Shown in pieces: positions 1 through 60,585 of a DNA stretch of 64,000 nt. The position numbers and the translations under genes were made by a program. The notes under the pieces are model-generated. The model made no database searches. It was given only the letters and a program-made list of their open reading frames with translations, and was not told where the DNA came from. The stretch's first letter is position 1. Every line of letters begins with the position of its first letter. Source of the stretch: Pegea sp. RAD2-039 (taxonomy: Eukaryota > Chordata > Thaliacea > Salpida > Salpidae); the NCBI GenBank assembly GCA_034620365.1, contig JAQGEQ010000330.1, forward strand, positions 372,001 through 436,000. The letters run 5' to 3'.

Positions 1-350
1 GGCATTAAGTTTACAAGTAACTAAAGGAGACAAAAGCGACCAACAAAACCTTATAATTTAAAACAAATTATGATAATATATATAACACAAATGACGTTAC
101 CAAACACATAAGCTTGTGGTCAAAGTCTTCTTAAGAATATATATACATGTTTGATTTATAAAAGTGATTTATTAATCTTCAAAACAATTGAGAGAAATTA
201 TAATTTCAAAAGCAATGTTAGAAACAAAAAAATCTTTGCATGCAAATTCTGATGAAGATATCAAAGTTATAGAAGCTTTTACCATTATGATTTTGTTACT
301 TGTTGATTATTATTTGAATCCTTTTAATGCTTTGTTTTCAGTATTTTAGT
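1..350 (-). promoter_or_regulatory. Block P copy 1 (candidate bidirectional promoter, reversed)
   Basis: First of nine copies of a conserved block, here in reverse. The palindrome TTCTTAAGAA lies at 128-137. Beside it are TATATATA-type runs and TGACGTTAC, the reverse of GTAACGTCA. To the right begins the type B 5' region. The type A gene expected on the left would lie outside the window. A promoter role is inferred from its position between divergent gene units and its TATA/CRE-like content; no transcript evidence is available. Confidence 0.45.
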
Positions 351-1838
351 ACATTACATTTAAGATTATTAAGAAACTGCAAAATCCAAACTTTGTAAGA
401 GTATTTGTTAATTCTCTTGGTATTATTAGGTGTATTTTATATTTTTTAAATTTGCAAATAAACAATAAATTTCAAGAAATACTTACAGATATTAATTATT
501 AAAATTTTTTTATAAAACCTCTGAAAAACTATTCTATAAGGTATTATTATTTTTGGATTAGTCTGTGGGTATGTTTGGCTGAATAAAGTAATTAATCGCT
601 AGAAAAACTTGATTTCAGAAAATAGAGTATTAAAGCGATATAACAACATTTTAAGGTACATATTAATTCACAAAGCTACAAACATAAGGTTGAAAAGTAA
701 TGTTGTTACTGTTAGAAGTGAAAGTAGAAAATTTTACCATTTACGTAAGTGTTTCATCCCCTATTACTCTATATATACTTCATTCTGTAGTCAACACTGG
801 TTTCTTAGTAGTGTTTTGTTAGTTTTCTTCGTTGGTAGTTTCCTTTTACAAATTGAATAAAGCTAAAGATGAAAGTTTTCAGATATGGAGTTTTAATATC
901 AGATTTTCAAAACTGTTTAAAATAATAGTTTTAGAAAAATGCTCTTAGCTGTCAAAATATTAGATTTGAATTAAAATTTGTTAGTTTTTATTGACTTATC
1001 TATTATACTATTCTTATAAACTACAAGGGTAATAAATTATTTTTTTTTATTGAGCTTTTAATGTTTAACTTTCTTCTGTATTTTATTTTGTTTTTAAAGT
1101 TTCAATTTTCTTTTCCATTTATATTCTGCATTTTAAGTAAATCAAAATCAACACTTAAATTTGAATTTATTGAGTATATTGAAAATATTGACTCTATTTT
1201 ATTTATCATTAAAACATAAAAAACACTTTTAATACGTTTTTTGAATTAATTGTTGCTCTCAATGTATGTTACATCATAAATTTAAATTTTATTGAAAAAC
1301 TAACAATTAGATATTGGATAAAACCATTTAAAATTGTTTTCTTGAAATCTTTAAGAGTAGGGTCTACTTCGTTTCCATCTGTTTGAACTGTTCGAACCTT
1401 TTTCTTTTTTGCATACATTATTATATTTAATTTGCAGCTCCTTTTAATATTTCCACAAGCAAATGATGTTTTGTTCTCGTAAGTGTTACATGTAAAACAA
1501 CAACAATGTCTTTCTAATAGAAGAAGCTTTTTTGTTACAATATAAACCTCAATATTTTGCTATTTCAATATTGAAATATAACTAACAATTGTTTTTTGTT
1601 TATTTCAAAAAATTATCAAGATTTTGTGAATTAAAAATTCATTTTAAATACAATCTGTTTATAAAACATGATAAGTTTCTGTTTCAGCGTTCTAGAAAAG
1701 TTTTCTTTAAACGTGATTGATTTATAGTTACAATTATCATAAAAACCTTTAAATATATCAACCTAAGAAAATGAAAAAACTCATCCATCAAAACTTAATA
1801 AATTACCATAATTTCATTAACATTTTCTTTAAATTTTT
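350..1838 (+). repeat. Type B 5' region (leader/intron-like repeat), copy 1
   Basis: Long non-coding block found on the B side of block P. It recurs inverted at about 10230-11850, 32695-34200, 24320-25100 (shortened) and 57340-57890 (short), and in the same orientation at 46820-48361. Its right end, around 1630-1750, matches the sequence just upstream of the better preserved type B gene near 38400-38500. An 83-codon open frame at 609-860 is not conserved as protein between copies and is probably chance. Confidence 0.6.
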
Positions 1839-2010
1839 AATGAAAAGTCATATGAAAATATTGTTTGTGAAAGAAAGTTTAGTCGAAATTCAAATCGTTT
1901 CCATGATAGAATTTGCAAATGTGAAAAAAAGATATGTTGATCTGTTAATGTATGATCCTTTAGAAAGCCCGTATATTATGTTGCTATTGTACTTAAAAAC
2001 ATGAAGAAGT
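1839..2010 (+). pseudogene. Type B zinc-finger relic, single decayed finger
   Basis: In one frame the bases read [19 protein letters not shown], which is a finger start with its first Cys replaced by Asn and later zinc His residues degraded. The 5' region runs straight into this finger, so the N-terminal exon and earlier fingers are deleted. The following bases match the sequence downstream of the type B gene near 39380. A parallel relic at 48362 has the same truncation, so the deletion predates that duplication. An ATG-started frame at 1771-2004 crosses the finger in a different frame and should not be taken as a gene. Confidence 0.7.
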
Positions 2011-2417
2011 GACTGGGTTAAGATCTAAAGTTTTAAAAATTAGATGAATTATTTATTTGTTTTTAAAAACTATTTAGTTTTTATTCTTAAATTGATAAAT
2101 TTGATCAAAAATTATAATAAATATAATTACAAGATAAAAAATTACATAATCGTTAATAGCTAATAAATAGTGAGAATATAACAGCCATAGTAACTGAAAA
2201 ATAAGATCTCAATAAACAAATTTATAAATAACTTTTGCTTCAACAATGTCTACTTAAGAATACCTTCTGTCAATTCTCTAAACACCGATTACAGTGTCTG
2301 AAACAATTTATTTCAGTGGATTGATTCAGTAAGAAAAAGACTTCATTTAACTCTTTCTAAGCGTTGAGCAAGGCTAACAGACAAAGGTTGTTATTAAATC
2401 TTTAATTTGATGGTGCA

Positions 2418-2750: not shown

Positions 2751-3032
2751 TAAAAACATCCAATTAATTAGTAACAGCATTACTTAATAAATTGAATAAA
2801 ATGAAAAACTAAAACATTTCAAATATAATCGTTTAACAACTAACAGCTTGTAATCATTTATCTTTTTTAGTTTATCAGAAAATTCGACATCTCGTTACAG
2901 CAAAAAGAACAAAACTCCATAACAATTTTGAAATGGACTCAAGTAATGAAATGTTTTTATTATCTAATGATACTAAATAAAAGATGCTTTAATCATAATT
3001 TTTCTTTATTTATTGCAATAAACGAAAAAGAG

Positions 3033-3051
3033 GGTGTCTGAAAAGAGCACC
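3033..3051 (-). other. Histone-3'-stem-loop-like hairpin in block X, copy 1
   Basis: Read on minus this is GGTGCTCTTTTCAGACACC, a hairpin with a T-rich loop whose core CTCTTTTCAG equals the core of the metazoan histone mRNA 3' stem-loop. This copy has stem mismatches; copies at 23232 and 49560 pair better. No histone coding sequence was found upstream. Confidence 0.35.
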
Positions 3052-3869
3052 TCTTGCTAAACCACAATCTCACATACAACACATTTTGTACTTAATTAAG
3101 TTGGAAATTAAGAAAGAAAAAGATGTAACATTTGGCATATCAGTAGACTTAAAAATGATTGTTATAGTTCCAATTTCATCTATTCTTGTTAGCTTATTTT
3201 ATCTGTTTATTTGCATTCTTGCTTAACCAAATCGTAAATACAATATATTAATCACACTTAAGCATGTGACAACGTATAATAGTAAACTAAAAATTCTAGG
3301 TTCTTAGGATTGATTTATGTGAAATAATATATAGCCGTGTGTTTATAACAAGTATACGTAAACTATCTGCCTTATACCAAAATTAATAAATAATTATTTT
3401 TTAAATTAAATCACTATGAGTAATCTCAAAATTATAGATTATGATTTATTTTGTAATGCAAATCATTTTATCTTTTGGTTTATTTATAGGTTATTTATTA
3501 GTTAAAGTTTAATAAATAAATAAATCAAATAAAATCTGAAAAATAAAAGAAATATAAATAAATCATTAGGAAATACAAGAAAATAGTTTTTTTATTACAA
3601 TGTTAAATGTTTTTCTACAATATTTTTAAGAGCTTTCTAATAACAATTATCGACCTCAAACAAAAATCGAACTGTAAAAGTATCAGTTTTAAGGAAGTTT
3701 TTATTTCTTTTGGAACTTAATCTGGATTAAGTTTTTGTAGGATAAAAAATTTCAGCTTGATTTTATGTTTTCCTTTAGTTTATACAAAAACAGTTTAAAT
3801 GATTAATGTTTAAAAGATACTTCTAGAAAATTAATACTTTTATGTAGCTTTATAATAAACAAAAAAAGA

Positions 3870-4330
3870 ATGCAAGCTGCACTAACATAGCTTCTTAAGA
3901 AGTTTAGATTTGCAGTTACTCAATATTGCTGAAAAATTTTATGGCACAACAAATATTAATAGCAAAGCAGTAAAAGCCTCAAAATAATAATCAACAAGCT
4001 ACAAAACCCATACAGCAGAAGCTTCTAGAACTTTGATTCTGTCATCAAAATTTACGTGCAAACAAATTTCTATTTCTAACATTGCTTTCAAAATTATAAT
4101 TTCTCTCAACTGTTTTGAAGATTAATAAATCACTTTTATAAATCAAACATATATATATATTCTTAAGAAGACTTTGACCAAACGTTTATATGTTTGGTAA
4201 CGTCATTTGTGTTATATATATTACCATAATTTGTTTTAAATTATAAGGTTTTGTTGCTCTCTTTTGTCTCTTATAGTTACATGTAAACTTAATGTTAAAA
4301 GAGAAAAATGATTGGTGTTAGAAGATCATG
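3870..4330 (+). promoter_or_regulatory. Block P copy 2, upstream of ZF1
   Basis: Forward copy. TTCTTAAGAA at 4160-4169 is preceded by an ATATATAT run and followed by GGTAACGTCATTTG and TTATATATATTA. ZF1 lies to the right and block X to the left. The same arrangement occurs at copies 4 and 8. Promoter role inferred. Confidence 0.45.
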
Positions 4331-5036
4331 AATGATTTTTGATGTTTTGTAAACTTATGTAACTTGCTTAATTTTATAAGACAATTGCTAGTATTGATTT
4401 TTGTGAAGTTTTTGCAGGTATTGCGTTTAGACATTAAATTTTCAAACCTTTTTAAAATAAAGTTTGTAGTAAATGTTTATAACTGTCAAAATATTAGACT
4501 TTAAGTCAATTTTTGTTCGTTTATGTTGGCTTGTATGCTATAAATTCTTTGTACACTTCCATGATATTAAAGTATTTATTTTTTTTAGTTGAGCTTATCA
4601 TTCTTAAATTAATTCAATAAGTCAATATCAACTCTTGAATTTTCATTAAAATATTCTCTAACTATAACTAAAATATGATAGATAAATATAAATAAGTATA
4701 TTTGTAATTAAAAATAACTAGAAATAGTTTGATATATTTTTTTTATTAATCGTTGCTCACTATCAATGTAACATCATACAGGTGAATTCTATTAAGGACT
4801 TTACACTTGAATATGAGATAAATAACTGCAGATTAAAATCTGTAAAATTAAGGTTTAAATTCTTGTTGGTCTGTTTTAAACACTGTTAAATCTTACATTT
4901 ATTACATACTTTTAAATTTTTAGTTTCTGAACTCATGTTATCATTTTCACAAGAAAAATTGTTTTGCCCTCGTAACTGCTACATGTAAAACAATAAAGTC
5001 TTTTCAATTGAAGAATGTTTTTCTATTTATTAATAT
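4330..5036 (+). repeat. Type A 5' leader, truncated (ZF1)
   Basis: Conserved non-coding leader that follows block P in every type A unit, with recognisable landmarks near 4745 (TTAATCGTTGCTCACTAT) and 4980. Here it ends abruptly at a TATAGAA that runs directly into the finger array. The distal leader and splice acceptor present in the other copies are missing. Confidence 0.6.
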
Positions 5037-5566
5037 AGAACTCATACTGGCGAGAAGCCATATGAATGTATAGTTTGTGAAAGAAAATTTGCACATAATT
5101 CCAGTCTTTTAATTCATGAAAGAACTCATACTGGTGAGAAGCCATATGAATGTATTGTTTGTGAAAGAAAATTTAGTGATATATCTAGTCTTTTAAGTCA
5201 TGAAAGAACTCATACTGGTGAGAAACCATATGAATGTATTGCTTGTGAAAGAAAATTTCGTCGAAAACACCATTTGTTATGTCATGAAAGAACTCATACT
5301 GGTGAGAAGCCTTATGAATGTATTGTTTGTGAAAGAAAGTTTAGTCAAAACGCCCATTTGTTATATCATGAAAGAACTCATACTGGTGAGAAGCCATATG
5401 AATGTATTGCTTGTGGAAAAAATTTACACAAAAATCCAGTCTTTTAAGTCATGAAAGAACTCATACTGGCGAGAAACCATATGAATGTATTTTTTGTAAG
5501 AGAAAATTTACACAAAAATCTAATCTTGTATGTCATGAAAGAACTCATAATATTCATAAAAGTTAA
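5037..5566 (+). pseudogene. ZF1: type A zinc-finger gene lacking its start and N-terminus
   Basis: The array opens mid-linker ([11 protein letters not shown]) just after an in-frame stop at 5031-5033 and has no initiator ATG. The N-terminal region and first fingers are missing. Four complete fingers follow, with helices starting AHNSS, SDISS, RRKHH and SQNAH. A one-base deletion in the next finger, near 5418, shifts the frame and gives a TAA at 5445. A further finger (TQKSN) is readable in the shifted frame and ends THNIHKS then TAA at 5564-5566. That tail resembles the THNNHES tail after ZF4, not the THFNxKK tail of the other copies. Dead as it stands. Confidence 0.85.
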
Positions 5567-6261
5567 AATCATCTTGCTGGTAAACGTTTACTCACAATTC
5601 AAGTATGGAAAGATGAAAACATTTTTAAACTAAAAAGTAACTTAACTATAAAGAGATCTTTGAGTTTAAAGGAAACAAAATAATAATGTTCTGTTTGGCA
5701 GGTTGTTGCAATTTATGCTTTAATTTACTATTTTAATGATTGCTCTATTATTGAAATTGTGTGTAAGTCTACTATAAATAATAATGGTTTTATATTTAAT
5801 TTTTTACTTTAAACTAAAGTTGGTATTCTTATGTTGTTATTTTCGGACATCTTTTTTCTAAACTATTGAAAAATTTTGTATTCCTTAATTTTCGAAGTTT
5901 GTATATTAAGTATTTGTTAACATCTTCTTTTATTTTTCAACAAGTTTTTGAAAGTAATTATATTTTCTTAGTTGATACAGGCAGTCGAAATTGTGGTTAC
6001 TTTTTAGTTACTCTCTAAAGATTCGTTAAATCCTTATATGTTTGTAAAACTGATTATTTTTGTGTTTTGTATTTATTGTGAAAGTAAAACTACAGTTTTT
6101 AGTAATTATTGCAATTTTTATGAGAAAACTTATGTTTGAAATCTTAAAATTTATTTCCTTTCTTAAAATGCTTGTTGGAGATAAAAACAATAATCGTTAT
6201 TATCCTCTTCATACTATAAATTTAGAAAAAGAAGTTTTTTAACATTTCATATTATCGACAA

Positions 6262-9870: not shown

Positions 9871-10230
9871 AAAACATTTTGTAAGAGCTCTAATTAATTC
9901 ATTCTTGCTCCTGAAAGAAGATTTATTTTAATTACATATCTGATATATTTTTCTTTGTTTGCTTTTGTAGTCTTGCTAATATCTTCACAAGAGCAAGATG
10001 CACTTATTTTATCTCTGTTTGTATTTTTTAAACAAGTATGATCTACGTGATATCCTTATAAATCGTGATACTTGTGCTATATGCTCCGCTAGAAAAGTTT
10101 TGCAAATTTGTCTATTTTGCGGTATTTTTTTTGTAAAACTGTTCTTACTATCATCCAATGAAAAGTTTTTTTTCATTCTGATTTTTTGTCGTTCATAAAA
10201 TTGTTCGTTTACTTAATAATCTAAATTGAT
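9870..10230 (-). pseudogene. Type B zinc-finger N-terminal exon relic
   Basis: Read on minus, this aligns with the start of the type B gene at 38670: GAACGACAAAAA, then TCATTGGATGATAGTAAGAACAG-like sequence (SLDDSKNSF), the ATCTTCTTT region and the remains of the first finger with Cys codons lost. The ATG context is damaged and frameshifts are present, so it is not translatable. A 66-codon open frame on the plus strand at 9998-10198 is the antisense of this relic and is not a gene. A near-identical relic lies at 32330-32695. Confidence 0.75.
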
Positions 10231-11850
10231 AGATAAACTTTTTATTATTAAAACGAAAAATTTAAAGAAAATGTTAATGAAATTATGGTAAATTATTAAT
10301 TTTTGATGGATGAGTTTTTTCATTTTCTTAAGTTGATATATTTAAAGGTTTGTATGCTAATTGTAACTATAAATCAATCACGTTTAAAGAAAACTTTTCT
10401 AGAACGCAGAAACAGAAACTTATCATGTTTTATAAACAGATTGTATTTAAAATGAATTTTTAAAACACAAAATCTTGATAATATTTTGCAATAAACAAAA
10501 AACAATTGTTACTTATATTTCAATATTGAAATATCAAAATATTGAGGTTTATATTGTAACAAAAAAGCCTCTTATATTGGAAAGACATTGTTGATGTTTT
10601 ACATGTAACACTTATGAGAACAAAACATCATTTGCTTGTGTAAATATTAAAAGAAGTTGTAAATTAAATATAATAATGTATGCAAAAAAGAAAAAGGTTC
10701 AAACGGTTCAAACAGATGGAAACAAAGTAGACCCTACTCTTAAAGATTTCAAGAAAACAATTTTAAATAGATTTATCCAATATCTAATTGTTAATTTTTC
10801 AATAAAATTCAAATTTATGATGTAACATAGATTGAGAGCAACAATTAATTCAAAAAACGTATTAAAAGTATTTTTTTTAAGTTTTAATGATAAATATAAT
10901 AAACTCAATATTTCAATATACTCAATAAATTCAAATTTAAGTGTTGATTTTGATTTACTTAAAATGCAGAAAATAAATGGAAATGAAAATTAAAACTTTA
11001 AAAACAAAATAAAATACAGAAGAAAGTTAAACATTAAAAGCTCAATTAAAGAAAATCAATAATTTAATACCCTTGTAATTTATAAGAATTGTATAACCAG
11101 ATAAGGCAATATAAACTGACAAAATTTAATTCAAATCTAATGTTTTGACAGCCAAGAGCATTTAGCTAAAAATTTTATTTTGAATAGTTTTGAAAATCTG
11201 ATACTAAAACTCCATATCTGAAAACTTTCATATTTAGCTTTATTCAATTTGTAAAAGGAAACTAATACCGAAGATAACTAACAAAACACTACTAACAAAC
11301 CAGTGCCGACTACAGAATGAACTACGTATATAGAGTAATAGGGGATGAAACAATTACGTAGATGGTAAAATATTCTACTATCACTACTAACAATAACAAC
11401 ACTACTTTTCCACTTATTGTTGGTAGCTTTGTGAATTAAAATGTACCTCTTACTGCTCTTTTGAAATTCTATCTTAACACTTCACTTAATCATTGCTTTG
11501 TAGGTGGTACATAGTTGTTATATCACTTTAATATTCTTTTTTGTGAAATCAAGTTTTTCTATCGATTAATTACTGTATTCAGTCAAACACACCCACAAAC
11601 TGATCCAAAAATAAATATAACTTTCACAATAGTTTTTCAGAGGATTTATAAAAATAAAAATAAATGATTAATATCTGTAAGTATTTCTTGAAATTTATTT
11701 TTTGTTTGCAACTTTTAAAAATATAAATTACTCAAAATGAATAAAAACCGAATGAACAAATACTCTTACAAAGTTTGGATTTTGCAGTTACTTTATACTA
11801 ATAAAACAGCAAAAGCATCAAAATGTTAATCAGCAACCAACAAAATTATA
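10230..11850 (-). repeat. Type B 5' region, copy 2
   Basis: Inverted copy of the 350-1838 block, running from block P copy 3 leftward into the B relic. The segment at 10320-10450 matches the immediate upstream flank of the 38670 gene. Very similar to 32695-34200. No supportable coding sequence; the 66-codon frame at 10708-10908 is not conserved. Confidence 0.6.
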
Positions 11851-11859
11851 ATAGCAAAA

Positions 11860-12160
11860 GCTTCTATAACTTTAATATTTTCATCAGAATTTGCGTACAA
11901 AGATTGTTTTGTTTCTAACATTACTTTCAAAATTATAATTTCTCCAAACTGTTTTGGAGTTTAATAAATCTTTTTTATGTATCAAATATATATATATATT
12001 CTTAAGAAGACTTTTACCAAAAGTTTATATGTTTGGTAACGTCATTTGTGTTATATATATTTTTAGAATTTATTTTAAATTATAAGGTTTTGTTGGTCTC
12101 TTTTGTCTCTTTTAGTTACTCGCAAACTTAATGCAAATATAGAAAAACGATTGTTGTTAG
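11860..12160 (+). promoter_or_regulatory. Block P copy 3, upstream of ZF2
   Basis: TTCTTAAGAA at 11999-12008, GGTAACGTCATTTG near 12036 and a TTATATATAT run. It separates a type B relic on minus from ZF2 on plus, giving the basic head-to-head arrangement. Promoter role inferred. Confidence 0.45.
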
Positions 12161-13170
12161 ATGATCATGAATGATTTTTGATGTTTTGTAAACCTATGTA
12201 GCTTGCTTAATTTTATAAGAAAATTGCTAGTATTGTTTTTGTGAAGTTTTTGCAGATATTTCGTTCAGACATTAAATTTTCAAAGTTTATAAATTAAAAA
12301 TTTTTAGTAAATGTTTATAACTGTCAAAATATTAGACTTTAAGTCAATTTTTCTTCGTTTAATATGGCTTGTAATTTAATATGGCGATAAATTCTTTATA
12401 CATTTCCATGATAGTTAAATATGTATTTTTTTTTAATTTAAGCTTATCATTTTTAAATTAATTATAATTGAATGTAATTCAATGAGTCAAAATCAACTCT
12501 TAATTTTCATTAAAATATTCTTTAACTATAACTGAAATATATATATAAATATATAAATTAAACTAAGTATATTTGTAATTAAAATAACTAGAAAAAGTTT
12601 ATATTTTTTTATTAATCGTTGCTCACTATTTATGTAACATCATACAAGTTAATTCTATTGAGGAATTTACACTTGAATATGAGATAAATAACTGCAGATT
12701 AAAATCTGTAAAATTAAGGTTTAACTTCTTGTTGATCTATTTTAAACACTGTTAAATCTTACATTAATTACATACTTTTTAATTTTTAGTTTCTGAACTC
12801 ATGTTATCATTTTCACAAGCAAACGTGTTTTGCCCTCGTAACTGCTACATGTAAAGCAATATTATCTTTTCTACAGAAGAATTTTTTTTTCTATTTATAT
12901 ATTATAGAATTGGATATTATGTTGTCTAAATATTGAAATATAATCAACAATTTGTGAAAATACTTGCTATAGTTTACAAAAAATTGTTCTTCAAATTCGT
13001 TTTAATGAAAATATGTATATAGAACATCATAAGTTTCTGGTGAACACTTTTACAAAACTTGATCTAAGTTTGATTATTATCATTAGTAAACAAACTTATT
13101 ATATCATATAAAAATAATATATCACTTAAAACTAAAATTATTTCATATGGATATTTTAAAATTAAAAGAT
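12160..13170 (+). repeat. Type A 5' leader (ZF2), probably intronic in part
   Basis: Conserved leader, about 1 kb from block P to the splice acceptor. Closely similar to the ZF5 leader, including an ATATATATATAAATATATAAA run at about 12538. No open reading frame. Probably contains a 5' untranslated exon and an intron, but no donor could be fixed with confidence. Confidence 0.5.
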
Positions 13171-13184
13171 ATTCTTTTCTTCAG
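13171..13184 (+). promoter_or_regulatory. 3' splice acceptor before ZF2
   Basis: A pyrimidine-rich tract ends TTCTTCAG (AG at 13183-13184), 15 bases before the ATG. The same tract and spacing recur before ZF4, ZF5, ZF6, ZF7 and ZF8, which supports a real intron end. Confidence 0.6.
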
Positions 13185-13199
13185 CCTATTTACTTGAAA

Positions 13200-14360
13200 A
13201 TGAACTTGATACGAAGCAGCAACTTTACACGAAAAAGAAAACTGTCATCAGATGATGATGAGAAAAGTTTTAATAATAAAACTGCAGAAAAGAAAATTTT
13301 GGTAAACACTTCTGGTGGAGTACATAGCTTGTATAAACGTCATGCTGATGAAAATAGTTTAAATAATACTAAAGAAATTCCAACAACTACAAGTTTCCCT
13401 TATAAAGAGACTAACAGCGATAAAAAAGCATTCAAAGGGAAAGAATATAATGAAGAAAACAAACAATCATCTAATTTCAAAATCAAATATGAATGCTTAG
13501 ACTGTAACAAGAAATTTAAATTCAAATCTCAGCTTGTTTATCATGAAAGAACTCATACTGGTGAGAAGCCTTATGAATGTATAGTTTGTGAAAGAAAGTT
13601 TAGTCATAGATCTAGTCTTCTAAGTCATGAAAGAACTCATACTGGTGAAAAGCCATATGAAGGTACAGTTTGTGAAAGAAAATATTGTCATCGATCTAGA
13701 CTTTTAAGTCATGAAAGAACTCATACTGGTGAGAAGCCATATGAATGTATTGTTTGTGAAAGAAAATTTGCACAAAAATCTAATCTTTCAATTCATGAAA
13801 GAACTCATACTGGCGAGAAGCCGTATGAATGTATAGTTTGTGAAAAGAAGTTTAGTCAAAACACCAATTTGTTAAGTCATGAAAGAACTCATACTGGTGA
13901 GAAACCATATGAATGTCTTGTTTAAGAAAGAAAATTTGCACAAAAATCTAGTCTTTCAAGTCATGAAAGAATTCATACTGGCGAGAAACCATATGAATGT
14001 ATTCTTTGTGAAAAGAAGTTTAGTCAAAAGTCTAGTCTTCATTGTCATGAAAGAACCCATACAGGTGAGAAGCCATATGAATGCATTGTTTGTGAAAGAA
14101 AATTTGGTCATAAATCTAGTTTTCTATGTCATGAAAGAACCCATACTGGTGAGAAGCCATATGAATGTATTGTTTGCGGAAGAAAATTTACTCATATTTC
14201 CAATCTTTTAACTCATGAAAGAACTCATACTGGTGAGAAGCCATATGAATGTGCTGTTTGTGGAAGACGTTTTGCTCGAAATTCCACTCTTGTAACTCAT
14301 GAAAGGACTCATACTGGTGAGAAACCATATGAATATGTTTTTTGTGAAAAAAAAATTTAG
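13200..14360 (+). pseudogene. ZF2: type A zinc-finger gene with premature stop
   Basis: ATG at 13200 begins the conserved N-terminal region ([20 protein letters not shown]), 96 residues before finger 1. Five finger units follow before a TAA at 13923-13925 replaces the second Cys of finger 6 (codon 242). The frame then stays open for four more complete fingers (helices SQKSS, GHKSS, THISN, ARNST). It is lost where an extra A in an A run gives TAG at 14358-14360. Finger 3 has also lost its first Cys (YEGTVC). The first 241 residues could in principle make a four-to-five-finger protein, but three independent lesions argue for decay. Fingers 2-5 correspond one for one with fingers 3-6 of ZF5. Confidence 0.85.
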
Positions 14361-20928: not shown

Positions 20929-20943
20929 TTTCTAGTTACTAGG

Positions 20944-26469: not shown

Positions 26470-26484
26470 CCTATTAACTTGAAA

Positions 26485-35620: not shown

Positions 35621-35637
35621 AGTTTTATTTTCTTCAG
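35621..35637 (+). promoter_or_regulatory. 3' splice acceptor before ZF5
   Basis: TTTTATTTTCTTCAG with AG at 35636-35637. An in-frame ATG at 35599 lies upstream, but the acceptor makes the ATG at 35653 the likely start. Confidence 0.55.
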
Positions 35638-35652
35638 CCTTTTAACTTGAAA

Positions 35653-38390: not shown

Positions 38391-38669
38391 CATTTTGTTT
38401 TAAAAAAGTTCATTTTAAATACTATTATGTATGTGAAACATGATAAATTTATGCTTTAGCCTTCTAGAAAACTTTTGTTTAAAAGTGAATGGTTTACTGT
38501 TACAATTTGTATACAAACTATATCACATGAAATAAATTAATAAGGAATATAACTCTGTATGAAAATCTTTAAATTAACTATGTATTGTTTCATTAGTATT
38601 TTTTTAAATTTGTAATAAACGTTTTAATTATGAAAATTTAATTTTTAAATTCAGATTATTAAGTAAACA
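38390..38669 (+). repeat. Immediate upstream flank of type B gene
   Basis: Homologous to 1625-1835, to 10240-10450 and 32700-32945 (both inverted), and to 48150-48361. AAATTCAG at 38648-38655 just before ATTATTAAGTAAACAATG is a candidate splice acceptor, in the same position relative to the start as the acceptor in type A. Confidence 0.55.
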
Positions 38670-45417: not shown

Positions 45418-45432
45418 TTTCAAGTTAATAGG

Positions 45433-45447
45433 CTGAAGAAAAAGAAC
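45433..45447 (-). promoter_or_regulatory. 3' splice acceptor before ZF6
   Basis: On minus: TTCTTTTTCTTCAG, with the AG complement at 45433-45434, then CCTATTAACTTGAAA before the ATG. Confidence 0.6.
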
Positions 45448-46430: not shown

Positions 46431-46820
46431 TAACAACAATCATTTTTCTATATTTGCATTAAGTTTACAAGTAACAAAAAGAGACAAAAGAGAGCAACAA
46501 AACCTTATAATTTAAAATAAGTTATGATAATATATATAACACAAATGACGTTACCAAACATAATAACTTTTGGTCAAAGTCTTCTTAGGAATATATATAT
46601 GTTTGATTTATAAAAGTGATTTATAAATCTTCAAAACAGTTTGGAGAAATTCTAATTTTGAAAGCAATGTTAGAAACACAAAAATCTTTGCACGCAAATT
46701 CTGATGATAATATTAAAGTTATAGAAGCTTTTGCTATTATGATTTTGTTGTTTGCTGATTAACATTTTGATGCCTTTACTGCTTTGTTCTCAATATTGTA
46801 GTACAATAAATCTTTTTATT
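46430..46820 (-). promoter_or_regulatory. Block P copy 7, between ZF6 and a type B relic
   Basis: Reversed. The palindrome is altered to TTCTTAGGAA at 46582-46591; TGACGTTACC is intact near 46545. ZF6 leaves to the left and the type B 5' region to the right, so this is a head-to-head pair. Confidence 0.45.
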
Positions 46821-48361
46821 ATTATCAAGTAACTGCAAAATCCAAACTTTGTAAGAGTATTTGTTCAATCAGTTTTTATTATTTTTAGTATTTTATATTT
46901 TTTAAAGTTACAAATAAACAATAAATTTCAAGAAATACTTATAGATATTAATCATTTAAGGTTTTTTTTTTAAAAACCTCTAAAAGCTATTCTAAAAGGT
47001 ATTATTATTTTTTGATGAGTTTGTGGGTATGTTTGACTGAATACAGTAATTAATTGCTAGAATAACTTGCTTTCACAAAAAAGAATATTAAAGTGATATA
47101 ACAACTATGTACCACCTTCAAAGCAATGATTAAGTGAAGTATTAAGATAGAATTTCAAGAATAGCAGTAAGAAGTACATTTTAATTCACAAAGCTACAAA
47201 CAATAAGTGGAAAAGTAGTGTTGTTATTGTTAGTAGTGATAGTAGAATATTTTACCAATTACGTAAATGTTTCATCCCCTATTACTCTATATACTTAGTT
47301 CATTCTGTAGTCGGCACTGGTTTGTTAGTAGTCTTTTGTTAGTTATCTTCGTTATTAGTTTCCTTTTACCAATTGAATAAAGCTAAAAATGAAAGTTTTC
47401 AGATATGGAGTTTTAATATCAGATTTTCAAAACTATTCAAAATAAAATTTTTAGATAAATGCTCTTGGCTGTCAAAATATTAGATTTGAATTAGAATTTG
47501 TCAGTTTTTATTGACTTATCTGGTTATACAATTCTTATAAATTACAAGGGTAATAAATTATTTTTCTTTAATTGAGCTTTTAATGTTTAACTTTCTTCTG
47601 TATTTTATTTTGTTTTTAAAGTTTTAATTTTCATTTCCATTTATTTTCTGCATTTTTAGTAAATCAAAATCAACACTTAAATTTGAATTTATTGAGTATA
47701 TTGAAAATATTGACTCTATTTTATTTATCATTAAAACATAAAAAAACACTTTTAATACGTTTTTTGAATTAATTGTTGCTATCAATGTATGTTACATGAT
47801 AAATTTAAATTTTATTGAAAAACTAACAATTAGATATTGGATAAATCTATTTAAAATTGTTTCTTAAAATCTTAAAAAGTAGGTTCTACTTTGTTTTCAT
47901 CTGTTTGAACTGTTTGAACCTTTTTCTTTCTTGCATATATTATTATATTTAATTTGCAGCTCCTTTTAATATTTCCACAAGCAAATGATGTTTTGTTCTC
48001 ATAAGTGCTACATGTGAAACAATAACAATGTCTTTCCAATAGAAGAGGCTTTTTTGTTACAATATAAACCTCAATATTTTGCTATTTCATTTTTGAAATA
48101 TAAGTAACAATTATTTTTTGTTTATTGCAAAAAATTATCAAGATTTTGTGTTTTAAAAATTCACTTTAAATACAATCTGTTTATAAAACATGATAAGTTT
48201 CTGTTTCAGCGTTCTAGAAAAGTTTTCTTTTAACGTGATTGATTTATAGTTACAATTATCATAAAAACCTTTAAATATATCACCTTAAGAAAATGAAAAA
48301 AATCATCCATCAAAATTTAATAAACTATCTATTGTTTCATTAACATTTTATTTAAATGTTT
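46820..48361 (+). repeat. Type B 5' region, copy 4
   Basis: Same orientation as 350-1838 and closely similar along its length. No supportable coding sequence. Confidence 0.6.
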
Positions 48362-48500
48362 AATGAAAAGCCATATGAAAATATTGTTTGTGAAAGAAAG
48401 TTTATTCGAAATTCAAATCGTTGCCATGAAAGAATCTGCAAATGTGAAATAAAATATGTTGATCTGTAAATGTAAGATCTTCTGGAAAACCCGTATATTA
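48362..48500 (+). pseudogene. Type B zinc-finger relic, single decayed finger, second copy
   Basis: In one frame reads NEKPYENIVCERKFIRNSN. As at 1839, the first Cys is Asn and the finger joins directly to the 5' region. An in-frame TAA follows soon after. The shared deletion shows common descent with the 1839 relic. Confidence 0.7.
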
Positions 48501-50450
48501 TGTTGCTATTGTATATAAAAAAAAGAAGAAGTGACTGGGTTAAGATCTAAGGTCTTCAAATTAAATAAATATTTGATTTATTTTTAAAAACTATTTGGCC
48601 TTCATTCTCAAATTAATAAATTTGATCAAAAATTATAATAAATATAATTACAAGATAAATAATTACATAATCGTTAATAGGTAATAAAAAGTGAGAATAT
48701 AACAGCCATAGTAACTGAAATACAAGATCTCGATAAACAGATATATCAATTAATTTTGCTGTATCAATGTCTAGTGTCTAAACGATAACTTTAGTTTATT
48801 CTCTAAACACAGATTACAGTTTCTGATACAATTCATTTCAGTGGATTGATTCAGTCATAAAAAGACTTCATTTAACTCTTTCTAAGCGTTGAGCGAGACT
48901 AACAGACTGAGGTTGTTTTTAAATCTTTAATTTGCTGGTGCAAATGGGGCCACTATGACCTTCTCACTGGCTGCAGTAACCGCTTTGCACAGTATCTTCA
49001 CGTTATTTGGGGGGTTAATATGGGTTATTCTAAGTTTTGAGTCCGTGGTTTACAAAAAAGTTTGTATAAAAATGAATAAATTATTTTTGTTGAAATAAGT
49101 CTTATTCATTTTTTGTTTACATCATTTCTTATCAATTTATTTTTAGATTTTATTTTCTAAGGTTCTTAATTTCTAAACAAACTGTTTAATTGAAATTTTA
49201 AAATAGCTTCTCGTTTTGATCAGGTTTTTGGTAATTTGATTTTTAAACAAATCTGAAAAATAACAAGGTAAGTATTTAAAAACGACCAATTAATTAGTAA
49301 CAGCATTATTTAATAAATTGAAGAAAATGAAAAACAAAAACATTTCAAAAATAATCGTTTAACAACTAACAGCTTGTAATCATTTATCTTTTATTAGTTT
49401 ACAAGAATATTCGACAGCTCGTAACAGCAAAAAGAACAAAACTCCATAACAATTTTGACTTGGACTCAAGTAATGAAATGTTTTTATTATCTAACGATAC
49501 TAAATAAAAGATGCTTTAATCATAATTTTTCTTTATTTATTGCAATAAACGAAAAGGAGGGTGCCTGAAAAGAGCACCTCTTGCTAAACCACATTCTCAC
49601 AAACAACACATTTTATACTTAATTAAGTTGGAAATTAAGAAAGAAAAAGATGTAACATTTGAATATCAGTAGACTTCAAAATGATTCTTATAATTCCAAT
49701 TTCATCTATTCTTGTTAGCTTAATTTATATGTTTATTTGTATTCTTGCTTAACCAAATCGTAAATACAATATACTAATCACACTTAAGCATATGACAACG
49801 TATAATAGTAAACTAAAAATTCTAGGTTTTTAGGATTGAATTATGTGAAATAATATATAGCCGTGTGTTCACAACAAGTATACGTAAACTTTCTGCTTTA
49901 TACTAAAATTAATAGATAATTATTTTAAAAATTGAATAACTATGAGTAATCTCAAAGTTATGGATTAATATTTTTTTTTAATTCAAATCATTTTATCTTT
50001 TGGTTTTTTTATAGGTTATTTTTCAGTTAAAGTTTAATAAATAAATAAATCAAATAAAATCTGAAAAATAAAAGGAAAATAAATAAGTCATTAGGAGAAA
50101 CAAGAAATTAATTTTTTGTTAAAATATCAAATGATTTTCTAAAAGATTTTTAAGAGCTTTCTAATAAAAATTATCGACCTCAAACAAAAATCGAACTGTA
50201 AAAGTATCACTTTTAAGGAAGTTTTTATTTCTTTTGGAACTTAATCTGTATTTAGTTTTTGTAGGATACAAAATTTCAGTTTGATTTTATGTTTTTCTTT
50301 AGTTTCTACAAAAAAAGTTTAAATGTTTAATGTTTAAAAGAAACTTCTAGAAAATTTATACTTTTATGTAGTTTTATTATAAACAAAAAAAGAATGCAAG
50401 CTGCAATAAAATAGCCTCTAAAGAAGTTTAGATTTGCAGTTACTCAATAT
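48500..50450 (+). repeat. Block X copy 3
   Basis: Same orientation as 2010-3870. GC-richer segment at 48937-49018, donor-like AACAAG/GTAAGTATT with GT at 49268-49269, and hairpin at 49560-49578. No open frame of note. Confidence 0.7.
49560..49578 (-). other. Histone-3'-stem-loop-like hairpin, copy 3
   Basis: On minus: GGTGCTCTTTTCAGGCACC. Five outer pairs plus a G-U pair close a loop containing CTTTTCA. The core matches the histone stem-loop core CTCTTTTCAG exactly. Confidence 0.4.
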
Positions 50451-50830
50451 TGCTGAAAAATTTTAATGCACAATAAATATTAATAGCAAAGCAGTAAAAG
50501 CATCAAAATAACAATCAACAAGCTACAAAACCCATACTGCAAAAGCTTCTAGAACTTTGATTCTGTCATCATAAATTACCTACAAACAATTTTTTATTTC
50601 CAACATTGCTTTCAAAATTATAATTTCTCTCAACTGTTTTGAAGATTAATAAATCACTTTAATAAATCAAACATATATATATATATTCTTAAGAAGACTT
50701 TGGCCAAAAGTTTATATGTTTGGTAACTTCATTTGTATTATATCTATTATTATAACTTATTATAAATTATAAGGTTTTGTTGCTCTCTTTTGCCTCCTTT
50801 AGTTACTTGTAAACTTAATACCAATATAGA
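50450..50830 (+). promoter_or_regulatory. Block P copy 8, upstream of ZF7
   Basis: TTCTTAAGAA at 50686-50695. The CRE-like site is altered (GGTAACTTCATTTG). Block X lies on the left. Confidence 0.45.
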
Positions 50831-51834
50831 AATACGATTGGTGTTATATGATCATGAATGATTTTTGATGTTTTGTAAACTTATGTAGCTTGCTTAATTT
50901 TATAAGACAATTGCTAGTATCAATTTTTGTGAAGATTTTGCAGGTATTGCGTTTAGACATTAAATTTTCAAACCTTTTTAAAATAAAAATTCGTAGTAAA
51001 TATTTCTAAATGTCAAAATATTAGAGTTTAAGTCAATTTTTGTTCGTTGATGTTGGCTTGTAAGCTATAAATTTGGTATACATTTCCATGATACTTAAAT
51101 ATGTATTTTTTTAAGTAGAACTTATCATTTTTAAATTAATTCAATTAGTCAATAACAACTCTTGAATTTTCATTAAAATATTCTTTAACTATAATTAAAA
51201 TATAAAATATATATATAAATATAATTAAGTATTCTTGTAATCAAAAATAACTAGAAATAGTTTGATATACTTTTTGATTAATCGTTGCTCACTATTAATG
51301 TAACATCATACAAGTGAATTGTATTGAGAAATTTACACTTGAATATGAGATAAATAACTGCAGATTAAAATCTGTAAAATAAAAGTTTAACTTCTTGTTG
51401 ATCTGTTTTAAACACTGTTAAATCTTACATTTATTACATAATTTTTAATTTTTAGTTTCTGAACTCATGTTATCATTTTCACAAGCAAACGTGTTTTGCC
51501 CTCGTAACTGCTACATGTAAAGCAATATTATCTTTTCTATAGAAGAATTTTTTTTTTTATTTATATATTATAGAATTGGATATTTTGTTTTCTAAATATT
51601 GAACTATAACCAACAATTTGTGAAAATACTTGCTAAAGTTTACAAATAATTGTTCTTAAAAATCGTTTTAATGAAAATATGTATATAGAACATCATAAGT
51701 TTCTTGTTAAGACTTTTACAAAACTTGATCTAAACTTGATTGTTATCATTAGTAAACAAACTTTATATATCATATAAAAATTATATATCACTTAAAACTA
51801 AAATTATTTTATATACACATTTTAAAATTAACAA
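50830..51834 (+). repeat. Type A 5' leader (ZF7)
   Basis: Leader copy with all usual landmarks and the AGAATTGGATATTTTG segment near 51572. Non-coding. Confidence 0.5.
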
Positions 51835-51849
51835 ATTTTTTTTCTTCAG
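51835..51849 (+). promoter_or_regulatory. 3' splice acceptor before ZF7
   Basis: TTTTTTTTCTTCAG with AG at 51848-51849, 15 bases before the ATG. Confidence 0.6.
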
Positions 51850-51864
51850 CCTATTAACTTGAAA

Positions 51865-52911
51865 ATGAACTTGATACAAGGCAGCAACTTTGCACGAAAA
51901 AGAAAACTGTCATCAGATAATGATGAGAAAACTTTTAATAATGAAACTGCAGAAAAGAAAATTTTGGTAAACACTTCTGGTGGAGTATATAGCTTGAATA
52001 AATGTCATGCTGATCAAACTAGTTTAAATAATACTATAGATATTCCAACAACTACAAGTTTCCCTTATAAAGACACTAACAGCGATAAGAAAGCATTCAA
52101 AGGGAAAGAAAATAATGAAGAAAACAAACAATCATCTAATTTCAAAATAAAATATGAATGCTTAGATTGTAACAAGAAATTTAAATGCAAATCTCACCTT
52201 GTTTATCATGAAAGAACTCATACTGGTGAGAAGCCATATGAATGTGTTGTTTGTGAAAAGAAGTTTAGTCATAATTCCAATCTTTTAACTCATGAAAGAA
52301 CTCATACTGGTGAGAAGCCATATGAATGCATTGTTTGTGAAAGAAAATTTAGTCAAATAACCCATTTGTTGTGCCATGAAAGAACTCATACTGGTGAGAA
52401 GCCATATGAATGTCTTGTTTGTGGAAGAAAATTTAGTCAAAAACATCATTTGTTAGGTCATGAAAGAACTCATACTGGTGAGAAACCATATGAATGTGTT
52501 GTTTGTGAAAAGAAGTTTAGTCATAATTCCAATCTTTTAACTCATGAAAGAACTCATACTGGTGAGAAGCCATATGAATGCATTGTTTGTGAAAGAAAAT
52601 TTAGTCAAAAAACCCATTTGTTATGCCATGAAAGAACTCATACTGGTGAGAAACCATATGAATGTCTTGTTTGTGAAAGAAAGTTTAGTCGAAAATCTAG
52701 TCTTTTAAGTCATGAAAGAACTCATACTGGTGAGAAACCATATGTATGTATAGTATGTGGAAGAAATTTTGCACATAATTCCAGTCTTTTAAATCATGAA
52801 AGAACTCATACTGGTGAGAAACCATATGAATGTACTGTTTGTGGAAGAAAATTTAGTCAAAATTCCAGTCTTTCATACCATAAAAGAACTCATTTTAATC
52901 GGAAGAAGTAA
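51865..52911 (+). CDS. ZF7: C2H2 zinc-finger protein, 348 aa, 9 fingers
   Basis: Shortest apparently intact member. ATG at 51865 is followed by [20 protein letters not shown], a type A N-terminus of 96 residues. Nine fingers follow with all ligands present: KCKSH, SHNSN, SQITH, SQKHH, SHNSN, SQKTH, SRKSS, AHNSS and SQNSS. The SHNSN then SQ[I/K]TH pair appears twice (fingers 2-3 and 5-6), indicating internal duplication. The tail is THFNRKK. It carries an acidic-patch change ([15 protein letters not shown]) relative to siblings. Expected nuclear DNA-binding role; targets unknown. A candidate AATAAA lies at 53065-53070. Confidence 0.9.
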
Positions 52912-57890: not shown

Positions 57891-58240
57891 TTAATAATAA
57901 TAAAACAACAAAAGCATCAAAATGTTAATCAGCAACCAACAAAATAGTAAAAGCTTCTATAACTTTGATATTATCATCAGAATTTGCGTGCAAAGATTGT
58001 TTTGTTTCTAATATTACTTTCAAAATTATAATTTCTCCAAACTTTTTTGAAGATTAATAAATCACTTTTATAAATCAAACATATATATATATGTTCTTAA
58101 GAAGACTTCGACCAAAAGTTTATATGTTTGGTAACGTCATTTGTGTTATATATATTATCATAACTTATTCTAAGTTATAAGCTTTGGTTTCTCTCGTTTG
58201 CCTCCTTTAGTTACTTGTAAACTTAATACCAATATAGAAA
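57890..58240 (+). promoter_or_regulatory. Block P copy 9, upstream of ZF8
   Basis: TTCTTAAGAA at 58094-58103 and GGTAACGTCATTTG near 58130, flanked by TATA-like runs. Confidence 0.45.
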
Positions 58241-59255
58241 ATCGATTAGTGTTAGATGATCATGAATGATTTTTGATATTTTGTAAACTTATGTAGCTTG
58301 CTTAATTTTATAAGACAATTGTTAATATTGATTTTATTGAAGTTTTTGCAGGTATTGCGTTTAGACATTAAATTTTCAAACCTTTTTAAAAAGCATGTTT
58401 GTAGTAAATGTTTACAACTGTCAAAATATTAGAGTTTAAGTCAATTTTTGTTCGTTTATGTTGGCTGGTAAGCTATAAATTCTTTATACAACTCCATGAT
58501 ATCTAAGTATCTATTTTTTTATGTTGAGCTTATTATTTTTTATCGTTTTTAAATTAATTCAATATCAACTCTTGAATTTTCATTAAATATTCTCTAACTA
58601 TAACTAAAATATAATATATATATATAAATATAAATAAGTATATTTGTAATTAAAAATAACTAGAGATTGTTTGATATATTTTTTTAATTAATCGTTGCTC
58701 ACTATCAATGTAACATCATACAAGTTAATTCTATTTAGGAATTTACACTTGAATATGAGATAAATAACTGCAGATTAAAATCTGTAAAATAAAGGTTTAA
58801 CTTCTTGTTGATCTGTTTTAAACACTGTTAAATCTTACATTTATTACATACATTTTAATTTTTATTTTCTGAATTCATGTTATCATTTTCACAGGCAAAC
58901 GTGTTTTGCCCTCGTAACGGCATGTAACAACGGTATGTCAAACAATATTGCCTATTCTATAGAAGAATTTTTATCCATTAATTTAATATAGAATTGGATA
59001 TTTTGTTGTCTAAATATTGAACTATAACCAACAATTTGTGAAAATACTTGCTAAAGTTTACAAAAAATTGTTCTTCAAATTCGTTTTATATAAAAATATG
59101 TGTATAGAACATCATAAGTTTCTGGTTAAGACTTTTACTAAACTTGATCTAAACTTGACTGTTTTCATTAGTAAACAAACTTTATATATCATATAAAAAT
59201 ATTATATCATTTAATACTAAAATTATTTTATATACATATTTTTAAATAAAAAACG
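58240..59255 (+). repeat. Type A 5' leader (ZF8)
   Basis: Leader copy with standard landmarks. The CTGCTACATGTAA segment is replaced by CGGCATGTAACAACGG near 58918. Non-coding. Confidence 0.5.
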
Positions 59256-59271
59256 TTTTTTTTTTCTTCAG
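59256..59271 (+). promoter_or_regulatory. 3' splice acceptor before ZF8
   Basis: A long T-rich tract ending TTTTTTTTCTTCAG with AG at 59270-59271, 15 bases before the ATG. Confidence 0.6.
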
Positions 59272-59286
59272 CCTATTAACTTGAAA

Positions 59287-60585
59287 ATGAACTTGATACA
59301 AAGAAGCAACTTTGCACAAAAAAGAAAACTGTCATCAGATGATGATGAGAAAAGTTTTAATAATAAAACTGCAGAAAAGAAAATTTTGGTAAACACTTCT
59401 GGTGGAGTATATAGATTGTATAAAAGTCATGCTGATCAAACTAGTTTAAATAATACTAAAGAAATTCCAACAATTACAAGTTTCCCTTATAAAGACACTA
59501 ACAGCGATAAGAAAGCATTCAAAGGGAAAGAAAATAATGAAGAAAACAAACTATCATCTAATTTCAAAGTCAAATATGAATGCTTAGACTGTAACAAGAA
59601 ATTTAAATGCAAATCTCAGCTTGTTTATCATGAAAGAACTCATACTGGTAAGAAACCATATAAATGTATTGTTTGTGAAAGAAAGTTTAGTCGAAAACAC
59701 CATTTGTTAGGTCATGAGAGAACTCATAATGGCGAGAAACCATATGAATGTATTGTTTGTGAAAAGAAGTTTAGTCAAAAAACCCATTTGTTAAGTCATG
59801 AAAGAACTCATACTGGTGAGAAGCCATTTGAATGTATAGTTTGTGAAAGGAAGTTTAGTCAAAAAATCAATTTGTTACGCCATGAAAAAACTCATACTGG
59901 TGAGAAGCCATATGAATGTATTGTTTGTGAAAGAAAGTTTAGTCAAAAAACCAATTTGTTATGCCATGAAAGAACTCATACTGGTGAGAAGCCATATGAA
60001 TGTGTTGTTTGTGAAAGAAAGTTTAGTCAAAAAACCCATTTGTTATGCCATGAAAGAACTCATACTGGTGAGAAACCATATGAATGTATTGTTTGTGAAA
60101 GAAAGTTTAGTCAAAAAACCCATTTGTTATGCCATGAAAGAACTCATACTGGAGAGAAGCCATATGAATGTATTGTTTGTGAAAGAAAGTTTAGTCAAAA
60201 AACCTATTTGTTATGTCATGAAAGAACTCATACTGGTGAAAAGCCATATGAATGTATTGTTTGTGAAAAAAATTTTAGTCAAAAAACCCATTTGTTATGT
60301 CATGAAAGAACTCATACTGGTGAGAAACCATATGAATGTATTGTTTGTGAAAGAAAATTTGCACATAATTCTAGTCTTGTAAGTCATGAAAGAACTCATA
60401 CTGGTGAGAAACCATATGAATGTATTGTTTGTGAAAGAAAATTTAGTCATAGATCTAGTCTTTTAAGTCATGAAAGAACTCATACTGGTGAGAAGCCGTA
60501 TGAATGTATAGTATGTGGAAGAAAATTTGCGCATAATTCCAGTCTTTCATACCACAAAAGAACTCATTTTAAACATAAGAAGTAA
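59287..60585 (+). CDS. ZF8: C2H2 zinc-finger protein, 432 aa, 12 fingers
   Basis: ATG at 59287 opens [20 protein letters not shown], in which the usual ARKRKL is AQKRKL. Twelve fingers from residue 97 have all zinc ligands. Fingers 3-9 are a run of near-identical SQK-type units (SQKTH, SQKIN, SQKTN, SQKTH, SQKTH, SQKTY, SQKTH), pointing to recent unit-by-unit expansion. Then AHNSS, SHRSS and AHNSS, ending KRTHFKHKK. Two linkers are unusual: TGKKPYKC after finger 1 and THNGEKP after finger 2. Expected nuclear DNA-binding role, with no effector domain visible. A candidate AATAAA lies at 60741-60746. Confidence 0.9.
   Translation: MNLIQRSNFAQKRKLSSDDDEKSFNNKTAEKKILVNTSGGVYRLYKSHADQTSLNNTKEIPTITSFPYKDTNSDKKAFKGKENNEENKLSSNFKVKYECLDCNKKFKCKSQLVYHERTHTGKKPYKCIVCERKFSRKHHLLGHERTHNGEKPYECIVCEKKFSQKTHLLSHERTHTGEKPFECIVCERKFSQKINLLRHEKTHTGEKPYECIVCERKFSQKTNLLCHERTHTGEKPYECVVCERKFSQKTHLLCHERTHTGEKPYECIVCERKFSQKTHLLCHERTHTGEKPYECIVCERKFSQKTYLLCHERTHTGEKPYECIVCEKNFSQKTHLLCHERTHTGEKPYECIVCERKFAHNSSLVSHERTHTGEKPYECIVCERKFSHRSSLLSHERTHTGEKPYECIVCGRKFAHNSSLSYHKRTHFKHKK

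What the first reader, a model, noticed from the sequence alone, without database searches (positions are those of the whole stretch)
1..60585. Divergent two-family zinc-finger units built around a shared block P
Seen: nine copies of one AT-rich block. Wherever neighbours are readable, a type A zinc-finger gene leaves on one side, and on the other side lies either a type B relic/remnant (copies 1, 3, 5, 6, 7, 9) or block X (copies 2, 4, 8). Seven of nine keep GTAACGTCA and eight of nine keep the exact palindrome TTCTTAAGAA. Inference: one bidirectional promoter once drove paired paralogues, and B copies die repeatedly while A copies persist. This asymmetric fate is the most system-like feature in the window.
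Basis: partly seen in the sequence, partly recalled or inferred. Interest (0 to 1): 0.75.

Follow-up and report, generated by a model that had tools for sequence, protein, structure and literature searches.

The report
Zinc-finger gene cluster with one-way promoters
The window is a slice of a very large, recently multiplied family of DNA-binding zinc-finger genes; the repeated block looks like each gene's own start region rather than a two-way switch, and the dead genes beside it are mostly copies of one old broken fragment.

Summary
Nine copies of block P are real, with the motif counts as stated. They belong to a cluster of about 1.07 Mb spread over four contigs of one 105.7-Mb eukaryote genome: 111 pattern hits for P, 109 A-type and 32 B-type genes.

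P does not look like a two-way promoter shared by A and B. Of 100 listed P, 91 point at an A gene, mostly 1.1-1.26 kb downstream, and 0 of 100 have an A gene on the other side. Of the 14 B genes with an open frame, 13 carry their own B-type P in the same block-to-gene orientation; the fourteenth lacks both that block and its start codon. The B relics beside P have no P of their own and share one junction: one 5'-truncated fragment copied along with A. X and the relic are the two ends of one spacer between head-to-head A genes.

The asymmetry is real but milder: 92 of 109 A against 14 of 32 B keep an open frame, and 4 of 8 A genes in the window are interrupted. Best filed as a lineage-specific C2H2 cluster under duplication and decay.

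The parts
28..196 (-). block P copy 1 (alpha type), pointing left to an A gene outside the window
   Evidence: profile hit 158 bits; A gene at C254:370294-370584
876..1988 (+). B relic of copy 1: no own P; starts at the junction common to the relics examined
2960..3720 (+). block X of copy 2: flank of a beta-type P, related to a stretch also found away from P
   Evidence: related copy at 55762-56481
4101..4269 (+). block P copy 2 (beta type); head-to-head partner of copy 1
5034..5630 (+). remnant of A gene 2: N-terminal part deleted, frame broken
   Evidence: no A N-terminus found
9897..11224 (-). B relic of copy 3
11940..12108 (+). block P copy 3 (alpha)
13074..14357 (+). A gene 3 coding part, interrupted by an in-frame stop at 13923-13925 and without the usual C-terminal end
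19549..20931 (-). A gene 4, open (461 codons)
22015..22182 (-). block P copy 4 (beta)
22563..23323 (-). block X of copy 4
   Evidence: C254:394563-395323
24317..24513 (-). short stub of the B relic of copy 5
25259..25427 (+). block P copy 5 (alpha); head-to-head partner of copy 4
26449..28017 (+). A gene 5, open for 478 codons, then an in-frame stop inside a finger
32360..33685 (-). B relic of copy 6
34400..34568 (+). block P copy 6 (alpha)
35542..36528 (+). A gene 6, interrupted by an in-frame stop in its first finger
38354..39357 (+). B-type gene without a P block upstream in the window; open frame 38670-39209, degenerate fingers
44038..45522 (-). A gene 7, open (495 codons)
46482..46648 (-). 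block P copy 7 (alpha)
47396..48510 (+). B relic of copy 7
49487..50244 (+). block X of copy 8
   Evidence: C254:421487-422244
50625..50795 (+). block P copy 8 (beta); head-to-head partner of copy 7
51832..52908 (+). A gene 8, open (359 codons)
58033..58203 (+). block P copy 9 (alpha type upstream, but no B relic found)
59221..60582 (+). A gene 9, open (454 codons)

Best explanation
The window lies in a cluster of lineage-specific C2H2 zinc-finger genes (family A, about 109 N-termini; family B, about 32). Each gene carries its own upstream module: a flank, block P and a conserved leader. P is read as a one-way promoter plus first (5' UTR) exon, inherited from the common ancestor of A and B; A genes then have roughly 0.9 kb of leader, read as intron, before one exon that codes for the N-terminus and all fingers. 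Segmental duplication, often as head-to-head A-A pairs, made the present copies. One B copy lost its promoter end and came to lie behind an alpha-type P; it was duplicated with A as a passenger and eroded by deletions. B genes that kept their own P mostly stay open; B genes without one have decayed. The proteins are inferred to bind DNA with rapidly changing specificity. Shown: positions, orientations, shared junction, blocks in front of B genes, open frames, finger variability. Inferred: that P is the promoter, the exon/intron reading, and the DNA-binding role.
For: P strand predicts an A start on the same strand for 91 of 100 listed P (85 at 1100-1260 bp) and 0 of 100 have an A on the other side. 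A complete P-like block precedes 17 of 24 fetched B genes in the same orientation (90.7-128.7 bits), including 13 of 14 open ones; GTAACGTCA is kept in 31 of 47 A and 16 of 17 B blocks. 0 of 47 P units have a P in the B direction. The relic is found in 30 of 37 alpha and 0 of 10 beta units, 29 of the 30 matching from the first base of the query; the junction sequence is shared by five window relics and L071 and differs from the untruncated relatives L089/L090. Among B loci where a complete block was seen or its absence could be judged, 13 of 17 with the block and 1 of 5 without are open (Fisher p 0.039). Head-to-head neighbours among A genes: 37 of 105 adjacent pairs, shuffled mean 26.5, 0 of 5000 as high. 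A N-termini: 0 of 36 with a nonsense codon against about 17 expected without selection. Fingers: structural positions pN/pS 0.09, contact positions 0.92 and entropy 2.17 against 0.88 bits.
Against: No transcript data. In close alpha pairs P (+25..+80) diverges as fast as the stretch read as intron (ratio 0.92-1.26), so a strong functional constraint on that part is not shown within the A family. Between A and B the best conserved part is the upstream flank (-130..-20, 83-90%), not the palindrome, which is absent from 17 of 17 B blocks. The conserved upstream flank leaves room for some two-way activity. The faster divergence upstream of P than in the gene body of the closest pairs points to recombination or gene conversion, so part of P's sameness may be homogenisation. 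A N-terminal dN/dS is 0.88, close to neutral for amino-acid changes. Four B2-type loci with coding matches beside P were not read beyond their search rows or a partial locus.
Confidence: 0.8

Rival explanations
1. One reading: P is a bidirectional promoter that once drove paired A and B paralogues; B partners die repeatedly.
For: B-type sequence lies divergently behind alpha P in 30 of 37 units; the upstream side of P is well conserved between A and B modules (83-90%); B genes are open less often (14 of 32 against 92 of 109).
Against: Open B genes have their own P in the same orientation as A genes (13 of 14); relics start at one shared junction about 0.75 kb from P; of 8 B coding matches divergent from a listed P within 3 kb only 2 are open: one has no start codon and no own block, the other has its own block 2.1 kb from the A block. 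The short B-direction reading frame that starts in the flank of P is cut off early or has lost its start in a good part of the 47 units and is not kept as a protein.
Confidence: 0.08
2. P is conserved mainly because gene conversion and unequal exchange keep the A transcription units alike, with P near the edge of the exchanged tract, and not because it is a regulatory element.
For: In alpha pairs with the most similar intron stretch, the upstream flank and relic differ 2.1-4.4 times more than that stretch, while P and leader differ about as much as it does.
Against: The module is still recognisable between A and B families, where the following stretch is not alignable (0.2-0.3 identity beyond +257); the 25 bp at the palindrome are better conserved than the intron stretch also in copies found without the pattern (0.036 against 0.139).
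Confidence: 0.25
3. Block P and X are parts of a mobile element that spread through the cluster and carried a promoter next to zinc-finger genes.
For: X has relatives at 81-84% identity away from P with similar ends and a 69-70% relative at 55762-56481; X is AT-rich and shows no clear gene.
Against: 32 of 43 X matches lie at a nearly fixed distance (429-452 bp, one 1013) from a P of the same orientation; the listed P hits sit on the four cluster contigs only and at fixed distance from A genes. Copies spread by the duplication of larger units explain this better. X itself may hold an old insertion.
Confidence: 0.07

Closest known systems
Mammalian KRAB zinc-finger gene clusters (human chromosome 19, mouse clusters)
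   Same: Clustered C2H2 genes made by local and segmental duplication, fingers in one 3' exon, structural residues kept and contact residues variable, mixture of open and broken units (passages of PMC4592553; PMC5363842; PMC2443715).
   Different: No KRAB match in the A protein. The upstream modules here are about as well or better conserved than the coding N-terminus, whereas the mouse paper reports markedly divergent promoters in one highly similar cluster (passage in PMC5363842). Density is higher: about 141 A plus B N-termini in about 1.07 Mb against 72 genes in 3.5 Mb quoted for the largest human cluster (passage in PMC4592553).
C2H2 expansions of cephalopods and insects (including ZAD genes of insects)
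   Same: Large lineage-specific expansion of C2H2 genes in an invertebrate-like genome (cephalopods: passages of PMC13218726; insects: recalled, with search listings).
Divergent gene pairs with a bidirectional promoter
   Same: Genes face away from each other (37 of 105 adjacent A pairs).
   Different: Each gene has its own P; the two blocks of a pair lie 2.2-5.3 kb apart in 28 pairs. The common use of 'bidirectional promoter' for starts within about 1 kb is recalled, from no call.

Membership tests
C2H2 (Krueppel-type) zinc-finger proteins | Tandem fingers of 28 residues with TGEKP-type linkers | tested here: met
   84-bp periodic arrays; Pfam zf-C2H2 and zf-H2C2_2 above cut-off; fingers match ZNF568 and PRDM9 chains.
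KRAB zinc-finger proteins | N-terminal KRAB domain | tested here: not met
   No KRAB family among the 15 Pfam families of the A protein; for the B protein only the best 25 of 37 families were shown and KRAB is not among them.
ZAD zinc-finger proteins | N-terminal ZAD domain | tested here: not met
   Not among the Pfam families shown, same limit for the B protein.
Lineage-specific clustered C2H2 expansion | Many close paralogues in one region, made by local duplication | tested here: met
   109 A and 32 B N-termini, all but one on four contigs; units 82-99% alike.
Lineage-specific clustered C2H2 expansion | Absent or few in related species | not testable with these tools
   The genome has no relatives in the held collection (note).
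Bidirectional promoter gene pair | One promoter element between two divergent functional genes | tested here: not met
   0 of 100 P with A genes on both sides; open B genes have their own block.
Bidirectional promoter gene pair | Transcription starts in both directions from the element | not testable with these tools
   No transcript data available.
Mobile element | Terminal repeats or target-site duplications | tested here: inconclusive
   Inverted-repeat scan of X and its solo relative gave only short AT-rich matches; target sites not examined.

The most novel reading that the evidence does not exclude
Over a hundred zinc-finger genes share one kept-alike start module (flank, palindrome, GTAACGTCA, first exon) while their DNA-contact residues change freely: a co-regulated battery in which target choice evolves but expression control is held common, perhaps with the proteins acting on their own modules. 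The head-to-head pairing would then be a selected layout and not only a by-product of duplication.
Probability: 0.12. Interest if true: 0.7.

Novelty: new member of a known kind. Interest (0 to 1): 0.4.

Why it matters
It corrects a plausible but wrong reading: block P looks like each gene's own start, so the dead B genes say nothing about a failing two-way promoter. It also offers a compact natural experiment on birth and death of transcription-factor genes: about 141 genes in about 1.07 Mb, with copies that kept or lost their own start module and stayed open or decayed accordingly. If the module proves to be a common control element, the cluster would let one ask how a fast-changing repressor or activator repertoire is kept under one switch.

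Tried and rejected
Rejected: (1) P as a two-way promoter. (2) A protein-coding first exon on the B side of P: the short frame beginning MLETK is broken early or lacks its start in a good part of the 47 units and is cut after MLET in the B-module consensus. (3) B as a family that is dead throughout: 14 of 32 are open. (4) Wholesale haplotype duplication of contigs as the source of the copy number: of the 47 units compared, only two cross-contig pairs reach 99%; a smaller contribution is not excluded. (5) X as an alternative to B: it is the other end of the same spacer.

Led nowhere: naming the animal. The rRNA search failed twice. A guanidino-kinase family search gave an intron-less arginine-kinase-like gene and an intron-bearing gene that reads like creatine kinase (by recalled resemblance), which did not settle the group. 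Literature searches gave no paper on this cluster; that is a statement about those three searches only.

Limits and dropped rows: one search listed 100 of 111 P hits, so 11 were not mapped, and its reversed control gave 5 hits. A second piece of one A gene (C255:136287) and of one B gene (C255:424366) were dropped before counting. Of the A units, 47 of 100 listed P were read as sequence, chosen by the tool's ranking. Upstream DNA was held for 24 of 32 B loci plus the one in the window; in L088 it was too short to judge the block, and in L089 and L090 the block is cut by the end of the fetched stretch. 'Open' means an uninterrupted frame of at least 200 codons and no stop in the matched N-terminus, which is an upper bound for intact genes. 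The 25-bp pattern used to find P favours copies conserved there; one search repeats the measure on 34 copies found without it or lying in the window. Two Fisher values exist for block presence and openness: 0.018 counts L088 as lacking the block, 0.039 leaves it out; the latter is used.
Full report
Setting. The window is C254:372001-436000 of a 105.7-Mb, 387-contig eukaryote genome without held relatives; its G+C is 24.6% (base counts). It is dominated by zinc-finger arrays with an 84-bp period. Six-frame reading gives eight A-type arrays and one B-type gene. Of the eight A genes, 4, 7, 8 and 9 are open to the end, while 2 (N-terminal part lost, frame broken), 3, 5 and 6 (in-frame stops) are interrupted.

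Check of the observation. Nine P blocks are present with the stated motif counts, far above chance. Copies 1, 3, 5, 6 and 7 have B-like sequence behind them; copy 9 does not by these tests. Copies 2, 4 and 8 have X. Copies 1-2, 4-5 and 7-8 are head-to-head partners, so X and relic are ends of the same spacer.

The whole cluster. A P pattern with up to 3 mismatches has 111 hits (reversed control 5). The 100 listed lie on C60, C89, C254 and C255 only. Searching the N-terminal proteins gives 109 A-type and 32 B-type places after two second pieces were dropped. They span about 1.07 Mb on these four contigs, plus one B on C93. P strand predicts the A gene: 91 of 100 have an A start 0.4-2.6 kb downstream on the same strand, 85 of them at 1100-1260 bp; 0 of 100 have an A on the other side within 2.6 kb. 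Neighbouring A genes are head-to-head in 37, tail-to-tail in 35 and tandem in 33 of 105 cases; head-to-head is above shuffled strands (mean 26.5, 0 of 5000 as high). There are 28 divergent P-P pairs, 2.2-5.3 kb apart, and 20 of them contain an X match.

Two kinds of P. Among 47 P units read as sequence, 10 form a class (beta) whose upstream side leads into X; the other 37 I call alpha. Both members of seven head-to-head pairs were held: five are alpha plus beta and two are alpha plus alpha. Of 43 X matches, 32 lie at a near-fixed distance from a listed P of the same orientation, and 11 do not. The X search scored only the best 40 candidates of 1098, so its counts are lower bounds.

What the B relic is. 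Relic sequence occurs behind 30 of 37 alpha and 0 of 10 beta units; 29 of the 30 match from the first base of the query. It corresponds to the A leader from about +252 onward and has no P. Aligned relics (five in the window, and L071) share the sequence across the junction, whereas L089 and L090, B genes of the related degraded class, run on into a B-type start module. The relics' homology ends fall into classes (9 units near 238, 3 at 379, 6 at 573-586, 12 at 704 or more of the query), so the erosion happened in a few steps and each was copied. The last class is limited by the length of DNA held.

B genes have their own P. A profile built from the 47 A units finds a complete block in the gene's own orientation upstream of 17 of 24 fetched B loci (90.7-128.7 bits), and two more are cut by the fetched ends. 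These include 13 of the 14 open B genes. The fourteenth (L071, C254:573052) lacks the block and its start codon. The B in the window (38670) has no block either. Just outside the window a divergent pair with an open B (C254:437439) and an A has two blocks about 2.1 kb apart. Where the block could be judged, 13 of 17 B with it and 1 of 5 without it are open (Fisher p 0.039).

How conserved P is. In copies found without the pattern, mean pairwise difference is 0.036 for the 25 bp at the palindrome, 0.104 for the rest of P, 0.083 for the leader, 0.139 for the stretch behind it (read as intron) and 0.148 for the coding start. In pairs of similar units, +25..+80 differs as much as the intron stretch does, which speaks against strong constraint there. 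Across the A/B split the upstream side (-130..-20) is 83-90% identical, the palindrome is absent from all 17 B modules, GTAACGTCA is in 16 of 17 B and 31 of 47 A modules, and similarity ends near +257. The closest pairs differ 2.1-4.4 times more upstream than in the intron stretch, a sign of exchange among gene bodies. So P is a module kept in common, by constraint, by exchange, or by both.

Selection on the proteins. A N-termini have pS 0.083 and pN 0.073 (dN/dS 0.88, 37 copies), yet none of 36 has a nonsense codon, against about 17 expected in a simulation from one central copy (shared descent makes this rough). In 81 window fingers the zinc-binding and core positions are almost fixed (pN/pS 0.09) and the contact positions -1, 2, 3 and 6 vary most (the position names are recalled). 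The A protein has no Pfam match other than finger-like ones, and none of the best stretches lies in its first 100 residues. This is what one expects of DNA-binding proteins with changing specificity.

Mechanism, in steps. Shown: one block per gene in a fixed orientation; block loss and shared junction of relics; the order of events within units. Inferred: P is promoter plus first exon; segmental duplication of head-to-head pairs spread the units; the promoterless B fragment was never again expressed. Not excluded: weak two-way activity of P.

Comparison. It works like clustered KRAB zinc-finger genes of mammals but is not a member of that family (no KRAB in the A protein). Passages read: PMC4592553, PMC5363842, PMC2443715, PMC13218726. 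Other papers were seen as search listings only. The contrast with the mouse report of divergent promoters in a similar cluster is the most interesting point.

Verdict. The two-way promoter reading fails, the asymmetric fate holds in a weaker form with another cause, and the whole is a new example of a known kind.

Noticed in passing
C254:437439-441961 (just right of the window; L085): A divergent pair of an open B gene and an open A gene with two separate start blocks: the best natural test of the one-way model.
   Followed up: partly
window 2960-3720, 22563-23323, 49487-50244, 55762-56481: X contains a discrete AT-rich stretch with relatives at 69-84% identity away from P; possibly an old insertion. 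No terminal repeats recognised.
   Followed up: partly
L071/L068 and L019/L020 (C254:571531 with C255:62654; C254:360521 with C255:357511): Unit pairs on different contigs are 99.2% identical over about 3 kb: very recent duplicates or haplotypes placed on separate contigs.
   Followed up: no
47 P units: In the closest unit pairs the DNA upstream of P is 2-4 times more different than the stretch downstream of it, as if gene bodies were exchanged with an edge near P.
   Followed up: partly
flank of each P, about 80 bp upstream of the palindrome, B direction (e.g. window 221-346, +): A short reading frame beginning MLETK is shared by many units but broken in a good part of them; its DNA is well conserved also in B modules.
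   Followed up: yes
L001, L002 (C46): Similar zinc fingers also occur on contig C46, outside the four cluster contigs and without a listed P.
   Followed up: no
L073 (C78) and L075 (C32): The genome has an intron-less arginine-kinase-like gene with a repetitive acidic tail and an intron-bearing creatine-kinase-like gene; a hint to the animal group that was not resolved.
   Followed up: no
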